A DNA stretch of 64,000 nt from Bacillus nitratireducens. GTDB taxonomy: Bacteria > Bacillota > Bacilli > Bacillales > Bacillaceae_G. Of the stretch, positions 15,396-63,442 are shown one piece after another. The notes under the pieces are model-generated. The model searched no databases. It was given only the letters and a program-made list of their open reading frames with translations, and was not told the DNA's origin. Numbering within the stretch: the stretch's first letter is position 1; each line of letters begins with the position of its first letter. The DNA is taken from positions 1-64,000 of the forward strand of contig NZ_MAOC01000076.1 in assembly GCF_001884135.1 (NCBI RefSeq), written 5' to 3'. The translations under genes and the position numbers were made by a program.

Positions 15396-16028
15396 TTATT
15401 TCGTCAATTGATGTCTAAACGCATAAATAACCGCCTGTGTCCTGTCACTTACATTTAGCTTATTTAATATATTACTCACATGTGTCTTTACTGTTTTGAG
15501 AGCAATAAACAACTCATCTGCAATCTCTTGATTACTTTTCCCCTCTGCAATTAATAACAAAATTTCAGACTCTCTTTCTGTTAACTCCTCATGCAAAGGT
15601 TGTTCTTTCTTCTGACGCATACGAGACATCATTTTGCCAGTAACTTTTGGCTCTAATACCGTTTCTCCATCATAAGTAGCTCGTACAGCGTCTGCTATAT
15701 CACTTGCTCTTGATGTTTTTAATAAATAACTTGTCGCCCCCGCCTCAATAACAGGATACAACTTCTCATCATCTAAAAAGCTCGTTACAACCACAATTTT
15801 CGCTTCTGGCCATTCCTGAATAATAGCACGTGTTGCTTCAACACCGTCCATCTCATCCATGACAAGGTCCATCAAAATAATATCCGGTCTTAATTGCAAA
15901 GCTAACTCTGAACCTTTTCTTCCATTTTCAGCTTCTCCAACCACTTCAATATCTGGCTGCGTTGATAAATATGCTGATACACCCATTCGAACCATTTCAT
16001 GGTCATCAACTAGTAATACTTTTATCAT
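15396..16028 (-). CDS. liaR: LuxR-type response regulator of cell-envelope stress, LiaR/VraR
   Basis: This encodes 210 residues. The receiver domain has acidic Asp8/Asp9 and phospho-acceptor Asp54 ([12 protein letters not shown]), followed by a LuxR/NarL helix-turn-helix (~147-207, [23 protein letters not shown]). ATGA overlaps the end of liaS by 4 nt, so the pair is translationally coupled. It should bind the palindrome at 19082-19109 and drive liaI-liaH. Confidence 0.92.
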
Positions 16029-17080
16029 GACTCTCCCCCTCTCTCAATCATAATCGGTACTTTCACTTCTATTTGCGTACCTTTATTTGGAAAACTAAGT
16101 ACTTTTAATGTACCACCAATTTCATGAACTCGCTCTTGCATTGATCTTAAACCGTATGAACCTGCCTTATTAACCCCAACTTTAAAACCAACACCATCAT
16201 CAATAATTTTCAAAATCGCATATTGATCAATTTTACGTAGGCGTACTTCGGTTTTCTTTGCCTTCGCATGCCGTAAAGTATTAGACAACGCCTCTTGCAC
16301 AATACGGAATAAATGATCTTCTACACCTTTTTTTAATTGAATTGGTTCAATTAACCATTCAATTTTCATATGTTGCTTTCTAGACAGTTCTGTTAATAAT
16401 TCTTCTATACCCTCTGTTAGTTTCTTACCTTCTAACTGCACTGGGCGTAAGTGAAGGAGCAATGCTCTCATTTCTGATTGTGCATTTACAACCATATTCT
16501 CAACAAGCTGCAACTGTTTTTTCGTCGTGTCTGGAATTTCAGCTACTTGTTCATTAATAGCTGACATCATCATCGACATTGCAAAAAGCTGCTGACTTAC
16601 AGAATCATGCAGCTCCCTCGCCAATCGATGCCTTTCTTGGGAAATCGCTTCTTGTCTCATCTCTTCATTCCAATGAGCTCGTTCATTCGTTACTTTTTGA
16701 AATAGCCCAGCTTGCTCCTCTAATCGACGAGCAAGGCCGATTACTTTTCGTTCCACTTCATGAAATTCATCATCCGCAGTAAACGAAACATCACTCGGAA
16801 AATTCCCTCGCTCTACTTCAAATAGAAAAGTATTTAATCCTTGTATACGCTGCTCTATATAATAACCGATTGCATAGCCTACAATTCCTCCGATAAGAAG
16901 ACTAGTACTCATAATAAACAAGCCAATTGGAACAGAAGCAATGGATTCTTTCCATAGTAAATCATAAACTTGTTGTTCGCTTTTCCATACATATACAATT
17001 GTACAAATAAGTGCGATACTCACAGAGGACAACATAGAATAACGAATATACATCCACGAAATATTCTTTTGTTTTTTCAT
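16025..17080 (-). CDS. liaS: Membrane sensor histidine kinase LiaS
   Basis: This is an intramembrane-sensing kinase of 351 residues. Two membrane helices (~15-33, ~47-75) are separated by a very short outer loop, then HAMP, a HisKA_3 box with [12 protein letters not shown] (phospho-His158) and an HATPase domain ending in DDGVGFK and [12 protein letters not shown]. Start ATG overlaps the liaF stop by one base. It acts with LiaF and LiaR. Confidence 0.92.
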
Positions 17081-17820
17081 TATACTTTCCTCACTTCCGT
17101 ATCGCCTACGACAAGCGAAGAAATAATTTTTATACGGCGAGGAGCTTCTTTATACTGTTCTGTTCTAAACGTAACATTACGGTTAAATCCTGTTTCTTCG
17201 TGCCCCGGCAAGAGCACTCGCCCAACAATAACAGAATGATTTAAAGACAGTTCGATATCATACGGCACATATAAACGAATATTACCAACGACTCCCCGAA
17301 TAACAATTACCGTTTCTCCCTCTGGAATCATCGCAGTTGTTAAATCAATCTCGACATCACATGCACCATATTGGACGTTAATATCCTCAAGCTCATAAAT
17401 ATGATCCATCATTCGTACATTACCTACGAACATATTTTTTATATACGGTTCTGTACGGTATATTTGTTTTTCTTCATCTATATATCCCTTTTCTTTAATT
17501 TCAACTTTCATTGCTTTTTGCTGGTGCCCTTGTTGAATAAGTTGATAACCAATTAAAGCTAAACAAGCAAATACAACAAGTACGAATGCTGCTGATGAAA
17601 ATAAGAAGAATAAGAATACAATACCACCGACAAATAAAAATACATTCCCTCTTACATAACGGTTTTTCTTTCGGTAATGCCTTCCAAACATAATCATAAT
17701 AAATGCAAATATTAGACCACCTGGTTCAAAATGCCCAAGTATCATATCAAGAAAAAGACCGAATCCAAATATGATGAGGAGCATCCCCATTAATTGTGTT
17801 TTTGAAAAGTGCTTCTTCAT
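17080..17820 (-). CDS. liaF: LiaF, membrane inhibitor of LiaSR signalling
   Basis: This encodes 246 residues. Four hydrophobic segments in the first ~100 residues precede a C-terminal beta-rich domain (NMFVGNVRMMDHIYELEDINV, IRGVVGNIRLYVPYDIEL) of the cell-wall-active antibiotic response family. In Bacillus LiaF keeps LiaS inactive without stress. The gene overlaps liaS by one base. Confidence 0.9.
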   Translation of the reverse strand: MKKHFSKTQLMGMLLIIFGFGLFLDMILGHFEPGGLIFAFIMIMFGRHYRKKNRYVRGNVFLFVGGIVFLFFLFSSAAFVLVVFACLALIGYQLIQQGHQQKAMKVEIKEKGYIDEEKQIYRTEPYIKNMFVGNVRMMDHIYELEDINVQYGACDVEIDLTTAMIPEGETVIVIRGVVGNIRLYVPYDIELSLNHSVIVGRVLLPGHEETGFNRNVTFRTEQYKEAPRRIKIISSLVVGDTEVRKV

Positions 17821-33634: not shown

Positions 33635-34951
33635 TCACACCAGCTCTTTAATACGTATGCGATCGTTCCCAATGATATTTTCATATGTTTCACGTTCTAC
33701 GACAATTTGTGACGTCCCGCCTTTTGCAAAGACGACAGCTGGTCTACGAATACGATTATAATTATTCGCCATCGAGTACCCATATGCCCCCGTACAAGAA
33801 ATTGCTAGTAAATCAGAAGGAGCAACTTGCGGTAAGTTAATATCCCAAATCAGCATATCTCCACTTTCACAGCATTTCCCAGCAATCGAAACGAGTTCCT
33901 CATTCTCATCATTCCCTCGATTCGCCAACATCGCCTCATAACGCGCTCCATATAGAGCAGGTCTTAAATTATCTGTCATCCCACCATCGACTGAAACATA
34001 TTTCCGAATACCAGGAATCTCTTTCACCGCTCCAACTGTATAAATTGTTGTTCCCGCATCACCTACGATACTACGACCTGGTTCAATCCATATTTCTGGA
34101 AGCGGGTATTCACATACTGTAAACTGCTCTCTTATCGTACTTGTTACAGCGTGCACATACGTTTCAAGTGTTAACGGTGTATCTGACTCCGTATAACGTA
34201 TACCGAAACCTCCGCCCACATTCAATACTTTCACTACATAGTTTGTTCGCTCTCTCACTTCCTCTAAAAATTGACGTAATACTTCAATTGCTCGAACAAA
34301 ACCAGCCGTTTCGAATATTTGTGATCCAATGTGCGAGTGAATTCCTAGCACATTATAATTTGATTTTTGCAAAGCTAGCTCAATTGCTTGCATCGCTTGA
34401 CCATTTGAAACACCAAATCCAAATTTCGAATCCTCTTGACCTGTTGTTATATATTCGTGTGTATGTGCCTCTACTCCTGGCGTTACACGGATTAATATGT
34501 TCACAAACTTTCCATGTTGCACTGCTAAATCATGTAAGATTTCTAATTCCAAGAAATTATCTACGACAAAACAACCTATATTCGCCTGAAGAGCCATCAC
34601 GATCTCTTCTTCTGTTTTATTATTGCCGTGAAAATGAATGCGCGATGCTGGAAATCCTGCTTGAAGCGCCGTATATAATTCCCCTCCAGAAACAACATCT
34701 AATGACATATTCTCTTCACGAGCTACTCGGCACATCTCCATGCACAAGAACGCCTTGCTTGCATATGCTACTTGATAAGAGAAACCACTTTCTTTAAAAG
34801 CACGATGAAACGCGCGGCACTTTCCTCGAATAGACTCTTCATCGTATACATAAAGTGGTGTTCCGTATTGTTTTGCTAGCTGCGTCGTATCGCACCCACC
34901 AATTTCTAAGTGTCCTTGCCCATTGATTCGGCTTGTGCCGTGTAAATACAT
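33635..34951 (-). CDS. lysA: Diaminopimelate decarboxylase
   Basis: ATG 34951 follows GGGAGG; the frame is open to 34984 without an RBS. The product is 438 residues, a fold-type III PLP enzyme: VAYASKAF carries the Schiff-base lysine, HSHIGSQIF and GGGFGIRY bind PLP phosphate, EPGRSIVG and CESGDML (catalytic Cys) with GAYGYSMANNYN complete the site. It decarboxylates meso-DAP to lysine. It is preceded by a lysine riboswitch. Confidence 0.95.
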   Translation of the reverse strand: MYLHGTSRINGQGHLEIGGCDTTQLAKQYGTPLYVYDEESIRGKCRAFHRAFKESGFSYQVAYASKAFLCMEMCRVAREENMSLDVVSGGELYTALQAGFPASRIHFHGNNKTEEEIVMALQANIGCFVVDNFLELEILHDLAVQHGKFVNILIRVTPGVEAHTHEYITTGQEDSKFGFGVSNGQAMQAIELALQKSNYNVLGIHSHIGSQIFETAGFVRAIEVLRQFLEEVRERTNYVVKVLNVGGGFGIRYTESDTPLTLETYVHAVTSTIREQFTVCEYPLPEIWIEPGRSIVGDAGTTIYTVGAVKEIPGIRKYVSVDGGMTDNLRPALYGARYEAMLANRGNDENEELVSIAGKCCESGDMLIWDINLPQVAPSDLLAISCTGAYGYSMANNYNRIRRPAVVFAKGGTSQIVVERETYENIIGNDRIRIKELV

Positions 34952-35027
34952 TTGAATTCCTCCCTTATTTCCTCTAAAACTCATAACCCCAATCTGCTAT
35001 TCATTGCAGCACGCTTTTAGATAGACA

Positions 35028-58189: not shown

Positions 58190-58420
58190 TATTCACCTAA
58201 CGGGAAAGTAACATATACTGGATGAAAGCCCTACCTCTCTCTCACCATTACGGTTCCACTGACCGCTCCTTGATTCACTAGTATACATATAAAGCTTACA
58301 TATACAATTTATAGGGTTTGTTCACAAAAGTTGTTGGTAAGACTACCCGATCTTTCGCAAACTTTTCGTATTATATTCATAAGATTTATTTACTTTACAC
58401 TAGCTTTAACCGAGACACGA
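58153..58420 (-). ncRNA. Candidate ~265-nt non-coding RNA
   Basis: It runs from a consensus promoter (58455-58427) to a strong terminator, with no ORF that has a ribosome site; the longest frames are 15-23 codons. Short hairpins such as CGGU-N7-ACCG are visible. It matches no RNA family I know (not 6S, SRP RNA, tmRNA or RNase P). Convergent with, but not overlapping the coding part of, the ykuS-like gene. Confidence 0.5.
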
Positions 58421-59818: not shown

Positions 59819-59849
59819 AAAAGGTATCTCGCTTTATGCGGGATACCTT
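59819..59849. terminator. Bidirectional terminator between 59448 gene and ktrB
   Basis: AAGGTATCTCGC pairs with GCGGGATACCTT around TTTAT. Confidence 0.85.
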
Positions 59850-61191
59850 ATCCTGTAAATACATCTTCTGATGGATATTTAATTTTTTGTTTCGCTGGTC
59901 GTGCCAAAGAGAAAACAAGTGTTAGCGGTCCGATTAATCCACAAAACATAACAAACATAATAATACATTTTCCAAATGCCGATAGCTTCGCAGTAATCCC
60001 CATTGTTAACCCTACTGTGCCAAACGCTGAAATTGTTTCAAATAATAACTGAATAAAACTGAAGTCTTCTGTAAGCATTAATACAAATACCGCTGTAAAA
60101 ATAAGTATTTGACTAGCAACGACAATTGCTAACGCTCTCGTTACTGTCGACATTTTAATCGTACGATGAAATAAAATAAAATCCTCTTTCTTTCTAAAGA
60201 AAGAAAGAACTGATGTAATTAAAATAACGAATGTCGTTAACTTAATTCCACCACCTGTCGATACACTTCCTGCACCAATAAACATTAATATCATCGTAAA
60301 TAATATCGATGACTCTTCCATTCCGCCATAATCTATCGTGTTAAAACCGGCTGTACGAGGTGTAATTCCTTGGAAGAACGAAGCCCATAACTTTTCATTT
60401 AAAGATAGTTGTCCCAAAGTCTTCACATTATTATATTCCAATACGAAAATCACAATCATTGCAATAATGTTAAGTGCTATCGTTCCAACAATCATGATTT
60501 TGGAGTGAAGCGATAATTTTCGGAAGCTGCGGCTATACCATATATCAATTAATACCGTAAACCCTAGCCCTCCTATTACAATTAAAGAACAAATCCCAAT
60601 ATTAATAATAGGATCTCCTACGTATCTTGTTAAATTATCTGGCCAAAGCGCAAAACCGGCATTATTATATGACGCAATAACGTGAAAAATACTATAGTAT
60701 AAACCTTTTCCAAATCCAAACTCTGGAATAAAGCGAATCGATAAAAATATAACTCCAATTAGCTCAATACAAATAGAAAAAATAAAAACTCGTTTCACTA
60801 ATTTCACAAGACCACCAATATTTGTTTGATTAAATGCTTCTCCAATTAATAATCGGTGACGTAAACCAATTTTTTTACCTAATACCCAAACAATTAAAAT
60901 GGCTATCGTCATAAGACCGAGACCACCTGTTTGAATTAAAAACATAATAACAATTTCACCAAACATCGTAAATGTACTTGCAGTATCTACAACGCCTAAA
61001 CCCGTTACAGTCGCTGCCGACGTAGCTGTGAAGAAAGCATCTACCCAACTAATATGTACTTTCGTTGCAAACGGTAACTTTAATAACAATCCTCCGACCA
61101 CAATTAAACAAAAAAAGCCTAATGCTAAAATTTGTGGTGGATTTAATCGTATAAAACGATTATACAACCCTTGTTTTTTTGCTACTTCCAT
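59848..61191 (-). CDS. ktrB: Ktr potassium uptake membrane subunit (TrkH/KtrB family)
   Basis: ATG 61191 follows GGGAG by 8 nt; an upstream in-frame codon is not supported. It encodes 447 residues with four pore repeats: ATSAATVTGLGVVD, ASYNNAGFALWPDN, GITPRTAGFNTIDY and SAFGTVGLTMGIT. The gating loop GAGSVSTGGGIKLTTF is intact. It imports K+ with a cytosolic RCK subunit (KtrA/KtrC), which is not encoded nearby. It resembles KtrB more than KtrD. Confidence 0.9.
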   Translation of the reverse strand: MEVAKKQGLYNRFIRLNPPQILALGFFCLIVVGGLLLKLPFATKVHISWVDAFFTATSAATVTGLGVVDTASTFTMFGEIVIMFLIQTGGLGLMTIAILIVWVLGKKIGLRHRLLIGEAFNQTNIGGLVKLVKRVFIFSICIELIGVIFLSIRFIPEFGFGKGLYYSIFHVIASYNNAGFALWPDNLTRYVGDPIINIGICSLIVIGGLGFTVLIDIWYSRSFRKLSLHSKIMIVGTIALNIIAMIVIFVLEYNNVKTLGQLSLNEKLWASFFQGITPRTAGFNTIDYGGMEESSILFTMILMFIGAGSVSTGGGIKLTTFVILITSVLSFFRKKEDFILFHRTIKMSTVTRALAIVVASQILIFTAVFVLMLTEDFSFIQLLFETISAFGTVGLTMGITAKLSAFGKCIIMFVMFCGLIGPLTLVFSLARPAKQKIKYPSEDVFTG

Positions 61192-61440
61192 ATCACTAAC
61201 TCCCTTTATCAAGTGAAGCTTTTACCCCTCATAAATAAAGACTCTTTAAGAGCCCACAAGTAGCGGGATAACCCTTATATTCTCATAATATAGTTGAGCA
61301 TAATCCTTTTTTTCATAGATTTCAACTTTTATTTATATTCAGATTCCTATTATTTTACAAAAGAATATTTTCTATTATATCTCCACTTATACTATAACTC
61401 TTACACCAACAACTATTTTACCCCTTTTTCAAATTCCCAT
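61192..61440. other. Upstream region of ktrB
   Basis: AT-rich. It contains a short stretch GCCCACAAGTAGCGGGATA (61251-61269) reminiscent of the 3' end of the bcr-like repeat, and GGGAG before ktrB. I searched for the c-di-AMP (ydaO) riboswitch known for ktr genes and could not recognise it. Confidence 0.4.
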
Positions 61441-61493
61441 ATCTTTCACGCCAAGTTCACACGAGGGTCACATCTTCCTTTTATAGTATACGT

Positions 61494-61620
61494 ATCGGAG
61501 CTGTTCCTCCCTAATTTATAAGACATTCCCCAGTGTCTTGAACAGCTTTCCATCCCTAATTAAATTGACATAAATTGTCCCCTTCCTTGGCCATCCTATA
61601 TGTGATGGTCTTATTTTTTT
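61494..61620 (+). ncRNA. Tandem small RNA copy 1
   Basis: -10 TATAGT at 61482-61487; terminator GGCCATC...GATGGTC plus T-run at 61589-61620. Stem GAGCTGTTC (61498-61506) with GAACAGCTT (61540-61548), inner hairpin AAGACA/TGTCTT, and unpaired C-rich motifs CUCCCUAA, UUCCCCAG, AUCCCUAA, GUCCCC that could pair with Shine-Dalgarno sequences. Transcription inferred, not shown. Confidence 0.65.
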
Positions 61621-61706
61621 ATTCTCTCTTTCTTCTTACTTAAAACTCCCTCTCTCTTTCACTCTATGTACACACCCTGGTCACATCTATCTTTTATAGT
61701 ATATGT

Positions 61707-61835
61707 ATCGAAGCTGTTCCTCCCTAATTTATAAGACATTCCCCAGTGTCTTTGAATAGCTTCCATCCCTAATTAAATTGACATAAATTGTCCCCTTCCC
61801 TAGGCCATCTCATATGCGATGGTCTTATTTTTTTA
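61707..61835 (+). ncRNA. Tandem small RNA copy 2
   Basis: -10 at 61695-61700; stem GAAGCTGTTC (61710-61719) with GAATAGCTTC (61754-61763), one G-U pair; the same inner hairpin and UCCC motifs; terminator GGCCATC...GATGGTC with TTATTTTTTT at 61803-61834. Confidence 0.65.
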
Positions 61836-61920
61836 TTCTCTCTACCTTCTTACTTAAAACTCCCTCTCTCTTTCACTCTATGTTCACACCCTGGTCACAT
61901 CTTCCTTTTATAGTATATGT

Positions 61921-62046
61921 ATCGAAGTTGTTCCTCCCTAATTTATAAGACATTCCCCAGTGTCTTGAACAACTTCCATCCCTAATTAAATTGACATAAA
62001 TTGTCCCCTTCCCTAGACCATCATATGCGATGGTCTATTTTGTTTT
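61921..62046 (+). ncRNA. Tandem small RNA copy 3
   Basis: -10 at 61909-61914; stem GAAGTTGTTC (61924-61933) with GAACAACTTC (61967-61976): the C-G pair of copies 1 and 2 is replaced by U-A, a compensatory change. Terminator GACCATC...GATGGTC, TATTTTGTTTT at 62016-62046. Confidence 0.65.
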
Positions 62047-62119
62047 CTAAATAGATCATCTAACTTTTTTGCTTATTTTAGTAAAAGCAATCTATATTTA
62101 AATAGATATTTTTATACAA

Positions 62120-62134
62120 AATATTCAGAAAATA
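62120..62134. promoter_or_regulatory. CodY-like box upstream of the DAACS symporter
   Basis: AATATTCAGAAAATA matches 13 of 15 positions of AATTTTCWGAAAATT, ~75 bp before the start codon at 62207. Confidence 0.45.
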
Positions 62135-62206
62135 CTGTCGAAACAGGTAGTTTTTCGGTACAATTAATTTAGAAAGTAATTTCACAAAAATAAGGGGGGG
62201 GTTTTA

Positions 62207-63442
62207 TTGAAACAAACAAAAGCAATCTTAATTGCATTATTTCTCGGTTTAGTTGTCGGACTCACTTTAAATTTAGCTGCACCATCCATTTTTGAACCAT
62301 TAAATCAATATGTGTTCAATCCACTTGGTCAATTGTTTATTCGTCTCATTAAAATGCTAGTTGTTCCTGTTGTATTCATTTCTATCGTGCTTGGGGCTGC
62401 TGGGCTTGGAGACCCGAAGCAACTTGGAAGAATCGGCTTAAAATCAATTTCATTCTTTCTTGTAACTACAGCCATTGCGATCTCTATTGCAGTTACATTT
62501 GCACTTATCATCAAACCAGGATCTGGCGGTAACTTTAAAACAGACGGGCTTAAGTATGAAGGTGCAAAAACTGAAACATCTTTCATCGACACAATACTTA
62601 ACATCGTGCCAGATAACCCAGCAAAAGCGATGGCTGATGGTAACATGTTACAAATCATTGTCTTTGCCGCATTAATCGGACTCGGTTTAGCTGTTTTAGG
62701 AAAACGAGTTCAAGGTATCCATTCATTACTTGAACAGGGCAACGAATTAATGATGTATCTTGTTAATCTCGTTATGAAATTAGCTCCAATCGGAACATTT
62801 GGATTACTCGCTTCATCCGTTGGTAAAATGGGTCTTGCAGGCGTCGCTGCGATGTTCAAGTATATGATTGTCGTTATGTTGGTACTCATTATTCACGGTG
62901 TCTTCGTATACGGCGGCTTATTAAAGGTATTGGCAAAAGAAAGTATTATTCGTTTCTTTAAACATTTCGGACCGGTAATGGCAATTGGATTTAGTACATC
63001 TAGCTCTAATGCATCTCTTCCATTTGCTATGAAAACCGCACAAGAAAAACTTGGAGTTCCAAAAGCGATAAGCTCTTTTGTACAACCACTAGGTGCAACG
63101 ATTAATATGGATGGCACTGCCATTATGCAAGGTGTGGCAACTGTATTTATCGCTCAAGTGTACGGAGTTGAACTTACATTAGCACAATTAGCCATGGTCG
63201 TATTAACTGCCGTACTAGCTAGTATTGGCACTGCTGGTGTACCAGGTGTTGGACTTGTAATGCTTACGATGGTTTTAAATCAAGTAAACCTACCAGTAGA
63301 AGGTATTGCTTTAATTATCGGTATTGATCGCATCCTAGATATGTCTAGAACAGCTGTAAATATTTCCGGTGATGCAATTTGCGCAATGATTGTCGCAAAA
63401 TCAGAAGAAAAATATAATACAGACCAATCGGCAGCATCTTAA
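62207..63442 (+). CDS. Dicarboxylate/amino acid:cation symporter (DAACS family)
   Basis: This encodes 411 residues; TTG start after a run of G. Conserved LFIRLIKMLVVPVVFISIV, GFSTSSSNASLPFAM (serine-rich hairpin), GATINMDGTAIMQGV and GIDRILDMSRTAVN. Transports glutamate/aspartate, C4-dicarboxylates or a related substrate with Na+/H+; clearly divergent from gltT of this window (SSSNASLP instead of ASSETVLP), so the substrate may differ. Terminator follows. Confidence 0.9.
   Translation: MKQTKAILIALFLGLVVGLTLNLAAPSIFEPLNQYVFNPLGQLFIRLIKMLVVPVVFISIVLGAAGLGDPKQLGRIGLKSISFFLVTTAIAISIAVTFALIIKPGSGGNFKTDGLKYEGAKTETSFIDTILNIVPDNPAKAMADGNMLQIIVFAALIGLGLAVLGKRVQGIHSLLEQGNELMMYLVNLVMKLAPIGTFGLLASSVGKMGLAGVAAMFKYMIVVMLVLIIHGVFVYGGLLKVLAKESIIRFFKHFGPVMAIGFSTSSSNASLPFAMKTAQEKLGVPKAISSFVQPLGATINMDGTAIMQGVATVFIAQVYGVELTLAQLAMVVLTAVLASIGTAGVPGVGLVMLTMVLNQVNLPVEGIALIIGIDRILDMSRTAVNISGDAICAMIVAKSEEKYNTDQSAAS

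What the first reader, a model, noticed from the sequence alone, without database searches (positions are those of the whole stretch)
61441..62047. Tandem triplet of promoter-terminator small-RNA units with 11-bp-phased TCAC boxes
Seen: three 213/214-bp repeats, each with TATAGT, three boxes TCAC spaced exactly 11 bp apart upstream (one degenerate), a C-rich transcript of ~125 nt and its own terminator. The outer stem shows a compensatory change (C-G in copies 1-2, U-A in copy 3) plus a G-U. Known: LhrC RNAs of Listeria are also tandem multi-copy, carry UCCC motifs that block ribosome sites and are induced by an envelope-stress two-component system; direct repeats at 11 bp suggest an OmpR-type response regulator. 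Inference: these are multicopy anti-Shine-Dalgarno regulators under a two-component system. I cannot tell whether the locus is already named.
Basis: partly seen in the sequence, partly recalled or inferred. Interest (0 to 1): 0.9.

Follow-up and report, generated by a model that had tools for sequence, protein, structure and literature searches.

The report
Three tandem regulated small-RNA genes
Next to a transporter gene sit three near-identical small-RNA genes in a row, each with its own switch-like promoter and terminator, which probably let the cell turn down selected proteins under one stress, most likely phosphate shortage; it looks like a new set of a known kind of regulator.

Summary
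Three head-to-tail units (spacing 213 and 214 bp) each carry three 11-bp-phased TTCAC-like boxes, a TATAGT -10 without a -35, a predicted 123-126 nt C-rich RNA and a terminator. The boxes are kept between the diverged copies 1 and 3 (15 of 15 positions) while the spacers (6 of 12) and upstream DNA (20 of 53) are not. The box triple occurs only at these promoters in 64 kb and in none of 60 shuffles. Unpaired C-rich stretches hardly change while stems vary, with one compensatory pair. No Rfam family reaches its threshold; two short open frames do not behave like genes.

I read it as a multicopy, response-regulator-activated, anti-Shine-Dalgarno sRNA array. The LhrC/LisR envelope-stress analogy is weaker: LhrC's element lies at about -55 to -75, these boxes at about -49 to -22. 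They fit the published Bacillus PhoP repeat best of the five repeats tried (11, 10 and 11 of 12), suggesting phosphate starvation. Layout is closest to streptococcal CiaR csRNAs. Expression, regulator and targets are inferred. No relatives could be retrieved (no own genome held; the one genome scan hit only a cyanobacterial contig), and I cannot exclude that the locus is already named.

The parts
61434..61439 (+). possible fourth, weak hexamer TTCCCA in phase, copy 1 only
   Evidence: 11 bp upstream of box 1; scores 5 of 6 against TTHACA; the same place reads TCCCTC in copies 2 and 3
61445..61472 (+). copy 1 box triple: TTCACG 61445-61450, TTCACA 61456-61461, GTCACA 61467-61472
61482..61487 (+). 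copy 1 -10 TATAGT, no -35 hexamer (at most 2 of 6)
61494..61618 (+). copy 1 predicted sRNA, 125 nt; start inferred 7 nt after the -10
   Evidence: fold z -4.7 for 61492-61618; length and composition; ends not measured
61589..61610 (+). copy 1 intrinsic terminator stem
61658..61685 (+). copy 2 box triple: TTCACT, TACACA (degenerate), GTCACA
61695..61700 (+). copy 2 -10 TATAGT
61707..61832 (+). copy 2 predicted sRNA, 126 nt
   Evidence: fold z -6.4 for 61705-61832
61802..61825 (+). copy 2 terminator stem
61872..61899 (+). copy 3 box triple: TTCACT, TTCACA, GTCACA
61909..61914 (+). copy 3 -10 TATAGT
61921..62043 (+). copy 3 predicted sRNA, 123 nt
   Evidence: fold z -7.6 for 61919-62043
62014..62037 (+). 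copy 3 terminator stem
61933..62016 (+). stretch of copy 3 that holds the three C-rich pairing segments (CCUCCCUAAUUUAU, AUCCCUAAUUAAAUU, GUCCCCUUCCCUAG), nearly unchanged in all copies
   Evidence: mean unpaired probability in copy 3: CCUCCC 0.84, AUCCCUAA 0.92, GUCCCC 0.50, UUCCCUAG 0.63; segment identities 13 of 13, and 37 or 38 of 38

Best explanation
Three tandem, independently transcribed sRNA genes. A phosphorylated OmpR-family response regulator, most likely PhoP of the PhoPR phosphate-starvation system, binds the three 11-bp-phased boxes on one face of the helix just upstream of a -10 that has no -35, and recruits RNA polymerase. Each unit then yields a roughly 125-nt RNA that ends at its own terminator. 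Unpaired C-rich stretches (two UCCCUAAUU copies and GUCCCCUUCCCU) pair with the G-rich ribosome-binding sites of chosen mRNAs and block translation or speed decay. Three copies give a large, fast dose. Shown in sequence: units, boxes, phasing, footprint-like conservation, predicted structures, near-invariant C-rich stretches. Inferred: transcription, regulator identity, pairing mechanism, targets. My step probabilities: sRNA genes 0.93; OmpR-family activator 0.85; anti-SD action 0.75; PhoP specifically 0.5.
For: Copies and phasing. Copy 1 against copy 3: boxes equal at 15 of 15 positions, spacers 6 of 12 (Fisher p 0.003), further upstream 20 of 53 (p 7e-6); copy 1 against copy 2: 14 of 15, 6 of 12 (p 0.016) and 22 of 53 (p 3e-4). 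No -35 (at most 2 of 6 at spacing 16-18). Match to TT(A/T/C)ACA-N4-6-TT(A/T/C)ACA, the B. subtilis PhoP consensus quoted in PMC12404567 (passage): 11, 10 and 11 of 12, against 10, 9, 10 of 12 for WalR and 7, 6, 6 of 9 for ResD (both consensuses recalled), 7, 8, 8 of 12 for CiaR, and 11, 10, 11 of 14 for the Streptomyces Pho repeat. Of 5 places in the window that score 16 of 18 or more for three such hexamers in phase, 3 are in the array (two registers of copy 1, and copy 3; copy 2 scores 15). Pho boxes are 11-nt direct repeat units, also in B. subtilis (PMC4415409 passages). YCCC occurs 6, 7 and 7 times per RNA against about 1.2 in composition shuffles; 12, 5 and 3 of 2000 shuffles reach this. 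Folding z -4.7 to -7.6. Unpaired segments nearly unchanged while stems vary. C-rich stretches pair better with the translation starts of 56 window genes than with mid-gene stretches (means -10.2 against -4.9, -9.0 against -5.0, -11.7 against -6.6 kcal/mol).
Against: The PhoP match is not specific alone: 21 sites in the 64-kb window (both strands) score 11 of 12 or better. Shuffled versions of the C-rich stretches pair with translation starts almost as well (means of 12 shuffles -8.9, -8.1, -10.4); the best shuffle beats the real stretch 2 (-9.32 against -9.02) and ties stretch 3 (-11.63 against -11.66), so no target is singled out. No relatives were retrieved, so the box conservation rests on three paralogues, of which copies 2 and 3 are nearly the same. 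No transcript data were seen. A scan of the 84,980-species genome collection for a 20-mer shared by all three RNAs found no Bacillus hit, odd for a conserved sRNA unless the relevant stretches are masked, differ slightly or are not held. Two short frames are open in all three copies, though they change like non-coding sequence.
Confidence: 0.5

Rival explanations
1. Same sRNA mechanism, but driven by an envelope- or haem-stress response regulator (LisR-, HitR- or HssR-like), as in the first reader's LhrC analogy.
For: LhrC1-5 are multicopy, carry three UCCC sites each and depend on LisRK (PMC4132741 passages). B. anthracis HitR and HssR act through direct repeats (PMC3968170 passages).
Against: The LisR-responsive element of lhrC5 lies at about -55 to -75, and that paper says no LisR consensus had been identified; here the boxes lie at about -49 to -22. 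The HitR and HssR repeat letters were not in the passages read, so no letter-by-letter test was made.
Confidence: 0.2
2. Another OmpR-family regulator (WalR or ResD) activates the array.
For: WalR's recalled repeat, read on the other strand, scores 10, 9 and 10 of 12. Cross-talk of PhoPR and YycFG/WalRK is reported in PMC13403408 (abstract). RoxS, a C-rich sRNA of B. subtilis, is ResD-activated (PMC4409812 passages).
Against: 295 sites in the window score as well for WalR as copy 1 does; ResD's recalled box scores at most 7 of 9, and the RoxS ResD-like site is around -65.
Confidence: 0.15
3. The array is a cis-acting leader of the downstream symporter-family gene (start 62207), or its RNAs mainly act on that neighbour.
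For: The gene has a run-of-G ribosome-binding site; the C-rich stretches 1 and 3 rank it 4th and 7th of 56 genes. Two mutually exclusive hairpins of similar energy follow copy 3.
Against: Each unit has its own terminator and 163 bp lie between the last predicted RNA end and the start codon. Stretch 2 ranks the gene 17th. Three promoter-terminator cassettes are not needed for a leader.
Confidence: 0.08
4. The unit is an already described intergenic repeat or sRNA of the Bacillus cereus group, for example a bcr family or an sRNA on a published list. This can be true together with the best explanation.
For: bcr10 and bcr18 are repeats with conserved structure predicted to be RNAs (PMC3446304 passages). 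1512 sRNAs were predicted in one B. cereus strain (PMC6704327 passages). KrrA bound 19 further intergenic regions in B. anthracis (PMC8938561 passages).
Against: bcr10 and bcr18 were found as parts of 5' UTRs, and bcr18 only on pXO1-like plasmids; the defining paper was not held. No Rfam 15 family reaches its threshold at the array.
Confidence: 0.2

Closest known systems
CiaR-dependent csRNAs of streptococci
   Same: Two to six csRNA genes per genome; response-regulator repeat with 11-bp period (TTTAAG-N5-TTTAAG) set 10 bp before a -10 (9 bp here); stretches complementary to Shine-Dalgarno sequences; own terminators (PMC3091779 passages).
   Different: Different box sequence (CiaR pattern scores only 7-8 of 12 here); three boxes rather than two; predicted fold with an asymmetric bulge that carries CCUCCC.
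LhrC1-5 of Listeria monocytogenes
   Same: Multicopy, each with three UCCC sites, under a two-component system (PMC4132741 passages).
   Different: Activator element at about -55 to -75 instead of about -49 to -22. Sequence homology was not tested.
RoxS/RsaE
   Same: C-rich anti-SD sRNA of Firmicutes with a duplicated C-rich motif, activated by a response regulator (PMC4409812 passages).
   Different: Different duplicated motif (CCCCUUUGUU there, UCCCUAAUU here); ResD-like site around -65; not described as a tandem array in the passages seen; no Rfam match here.
PhoP (Pho) regulon promoters of Bacillus
   Same: TTHACA-type repeats with N4-6 spacing (consensus quoted in PMC12404567).
   Different: [quoted passage not shown] subtilis are not excluded. 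I met no PhoP-driven tandem sRNA array in the searches made.

Membership tests
CiaR csRNA family | TTTAAG-N5-TTTAAG repeat | tested here: not met
   7, 8 and 8 of 12 at best
CiaR csRNA family | regulator repeat about 10 bp upstream of the -10, RNA of 51-202 nt, terminator | tested here: met
   9 bp; 123-126 nt; terminators; the RNA is predicted, not measured
LhrC family | three UCCC-containing, mostly unpaired sites | tested here: met
   CCUCCC 0.84, AUCCCUAA 0.91-0.96, GUCCCC 0.50-0.51, AUUCCCC 0.63 mean unpaired probability
LhrC family | LisR-responsive element upstream of -53 | tested here: not met
   boxes at about -49 to -22 from an inferred start; only copy 1 has a weak hexamer reaching -60
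LhrC family | sequence and structure homology | not tested
   no LhrC sequence was fetched, and I did not check whether Rfam holds an LhrC model
RoxS/RsaE | match to an Rfam model | tested here: inconclusive
   no such match at the gathering level or up to E 5; that Rfam holds an RsaE model is recalled
PhoP regulon | TTHACA-N4-6-TTHACA repeats in the promoter | tested here: met
   11, 10 and 11 of 12, so near but not perfect; 21 such sites in 64 kb, so weak alone
PhoP regulon | activation by PhoP~P in low phosphate | not testable with these tools
   needs expression data or a binding assay
bcr repeats of the B. cereus group | match to a bcr1-bcr18 consensus | not testable with these tools
   defining paper not held

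The most novel reading that the evidence does not exclude
A PhoP-activated tandem triplet of sRNAs that carries out a phosphate-sparing response after transcription in a Bacillus, the counterpart of the iron-sparing sRNA FsrA (role recalled) and of CiaR csRNAs.
Probability: 0.4. Interest if true: 0.65.

Novelty: new member of a known kind. Interest (0 to 1): 0.45.

Why it matters
Multicopy sRNAs wired to a two-component system are known in Listeria and streptococci. A phosphate-linked set in Bacillus would add a post-transcriptional arm to the Pho response, and the near-invariant C-rich stretches together with the promoter footprints make regulator and targets directly testable.

Tried and rejected
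Coding explanation. No minus-strand ORF of 40 aa or more overlaps the units; three plus-strand ones of 75, 41 and 44 aa do (61294-61521, 61788-61913, 61814-61948). Two short frames are open in all three copies. (a) Minus strand, 26 codons from an ATG at 61526, 61739 and 61953, running back through promoter and boxes, with GGGGA directly before the ATG. (b) Plus strand, the last 22 codons before a shared TAA, crossing boxes and -10, with an ATG in copies 2 and 3 only and no Shine-Dalgarno sequence before it. Changed codons mostly change the amino acid: (a) 7 of 8, 6 of 7 and 3 of 3; (b) 6 of 8, 4 of 6 and 2 of 4, for copies 1/2, 1/3 and 2/3. I reject coding as the cause of conservation, but a made peptide is not excluded. 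A first script read the wrong plus frame and was redone.

Further copies. The covariance model of the three units finds the three units; the other five listed hits have E 0.36 to 5.7 (its input alignment has a misplaced gap in the outer stem). Rfam up to E 5 gave 3 hits, all below their gathering scores: a Burkholderia sRNA model over the copy-3 terminator (E 0.0018) and two snoRNA models.

Targets. Whole-RNA duplex energies (symporter 44th and potassium transporter 12th of 56) were dropped because they allow long interior loops; the segment version replaced them. There the potassium transporter ranks 25, 22 and 38, and the lipoteichoic acid synthase gene 5, 15 and 32 of 56.

Relatives. Plasmids (symporter DNA), phages and viral-contig patterns gave nothing. 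The symporter protein gave two distant viral contigs, L002 at 46% and L003 at 65% over 104 residues, not read further. The potassium-transporter protein gave none. PDB searches meant to name the species did not. A CodY-like motif is not in excess: 9 sites against 14.9 expected.

Full report
What is there. Between a TrkH-family potassium transporter gene (59848-61212, minus; above its family cut-off) and a glutamate/dicarboxylate symporter-family gene (62207-63442, plus; below the curated cut-offs of its best families) lie three direct repeats spaced 213 and 214 bp. Each has three boxes at -37, -26 and -15 relative to a TATAGT, no recognisable -35 (at most 2 of 6), a predicted C-rich RNA of 123-126 nt and an intrinsic terminator. 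The sigma-70 scan listed none of the three promoters, as expected if they lack a -35. RNA starts are inferred from the -10 and were not measured.

More than chance. The box triple occurs only at the three promoters in 64 kb and in none of 60 dinucleotide shuffles; the pattern was written after seeing the boxes. A within-array footprint is stronger evidence. Copy 1 has diverged from copies 2 and 3 upstream (22 of 53 and 20 of 53 columns equal) and in the spacers (6 of 12 in both comparisons), yet 14 of 15 and 15 of 15 box positions are equal. Copies 2 and 3 are nearly the same, so this is one informative comparison rather than two.

The RNA. Each unit folds far better than shuffles on the plus strand (z -4.7, -6.4, -7.6; 0 of 200 each); the minus strand does so less (z -2.1, -3.5, -4.5; 7, 1 and 0 of 200). 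The outer stem carries one double compensatory change (C-G to U-A, copy 3) and G-U pairs. Exchanging the 5' arm between copies costs 1.4 to 5.4 kcal/mol relative to either parent (natives -30.6, -31.2, -34.0; four chimeras -28.6 to -29.7). The C-rich stretches hardly vary: 13 of 13, and 37 or 38 of 38. This is the pattern of pairing stretches held by selection, although three young copies are a small sample. UCCCUAAUU occurs twice in copy 3, and the alignment shows the same letters in copies 1 and 2.

Two short frames, 26 codons on the minus strand and 22 on the plus strand, are open in all three copies and overlap the promoter. Most changed codons change the amino acid (minus 7 of 8, 6 of 7, 3 of 3; plus 6 of 8, 4 of 6, 2 of 4), and neither has a well-placed ribosome-binding site. 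They do not explain the conserved boxes or stems.

What it most likely does. C-rich unpaired stretches in Firmicute sRNAs commonly bind ribosome-binding sites (PMC4132741 and PMC4409812 passages). In the window, translation starts pair with these stretches 4 to 5 kcal/mol better than mid-gene stretches do. Shuffled stretches do almost as well; the best of 12 shuffles beats real stretch 2 and ties stretch 3. The test therefore supports a general anti-SD ability and names no target. The best match for stretch 1 is lysA (33635-34984; family), 13 pairs with one mismatch; this is the best of 56 genes and is not claimed as a target.

Which regulator. Pho boxes are 11-nt direct repeat units, also in B. 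subtilis (PMC4415409 passages). The B. subtilis PhoP consensus TT(A/T/C)ACA-N4-6-TT(A/T/C)ACA (PMC12404567 passage) fits 11, 10 and 11 of 12, better than the other consensuses tried. Of 5 places in the window with three in-phase hexamers at 16 of 18 or more, 3 are in the array. From an inferred start at 61494, box 3 ends at -22 and box 1 begins at -49. I recall, without a call, that PhoP-activated Bacillus promoters carry their core site in about this place. The two-box match alone is weak: 21 sites of that score lie in the window. The LhrC regulator element sits further upstream, which is why I rank envelope stress lower.

What could not be done. No genome is held for the window. The only genome-collection scan, with a 20-mer shared by all three RNAs, hit one Anabaena contig and no Bacillus. 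That cannot be read as absence, because stretches can be masked in that collection and one exact 20-mer is a strict probe. Ten paper searches showed, by title and start of abstract in their capped lists, no paper about a PhoP-driven or tandem-triplet sRNA in Bacillus. Most listed papers were not opened, those opened were seen only as passages or abstract, and the bcr and response-regulator papers most likely to matter were not held. Whether the locus is already named stays open.

Verdict. A well-built array of three predicted, regulated sRNA genes: a new member of a known kind by what I could test, with a plausible and testable phosphate link.

Noticed in passing
window 62014-62060: After copy 3, the terminator hairpin (62014-62037) overlaps a second hairpin (62029-62060, followed by TAACTTTTTT); the two are mutually exclusive and nearly equal in energy.
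   Followed up: partly
window 61449-61526, 61662-61739, 61876-61953 (-): A 26-codon minus-strand frame is open in all three units and ends within box 1; it changes like non-coding sequence.
   Followed up: yes
window 62120-62134: AATATTCAGAAAATA upstream of the symporter-family gene is 2 mismatches from the recalled CodY consensus; sites with up to 3 mismatches are not in excess in the window.
   Followed up: partly
window 58214-58293 (+): Match to the Rfam sRNA family BsrC at 55 bits against a gathering score of 38, about 3 kb from the array.
   Followed up: partly
window 62194-62201: The symporter-family gene has a run of eight G at its ribosome-binding site.
   Followed up: no
window 15396-17820 (-): A LiaF-family protein, a kinase nearest to LiaS (below its cut-off) and a NarL-type response regulator gene lie together.
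   Followed up: no
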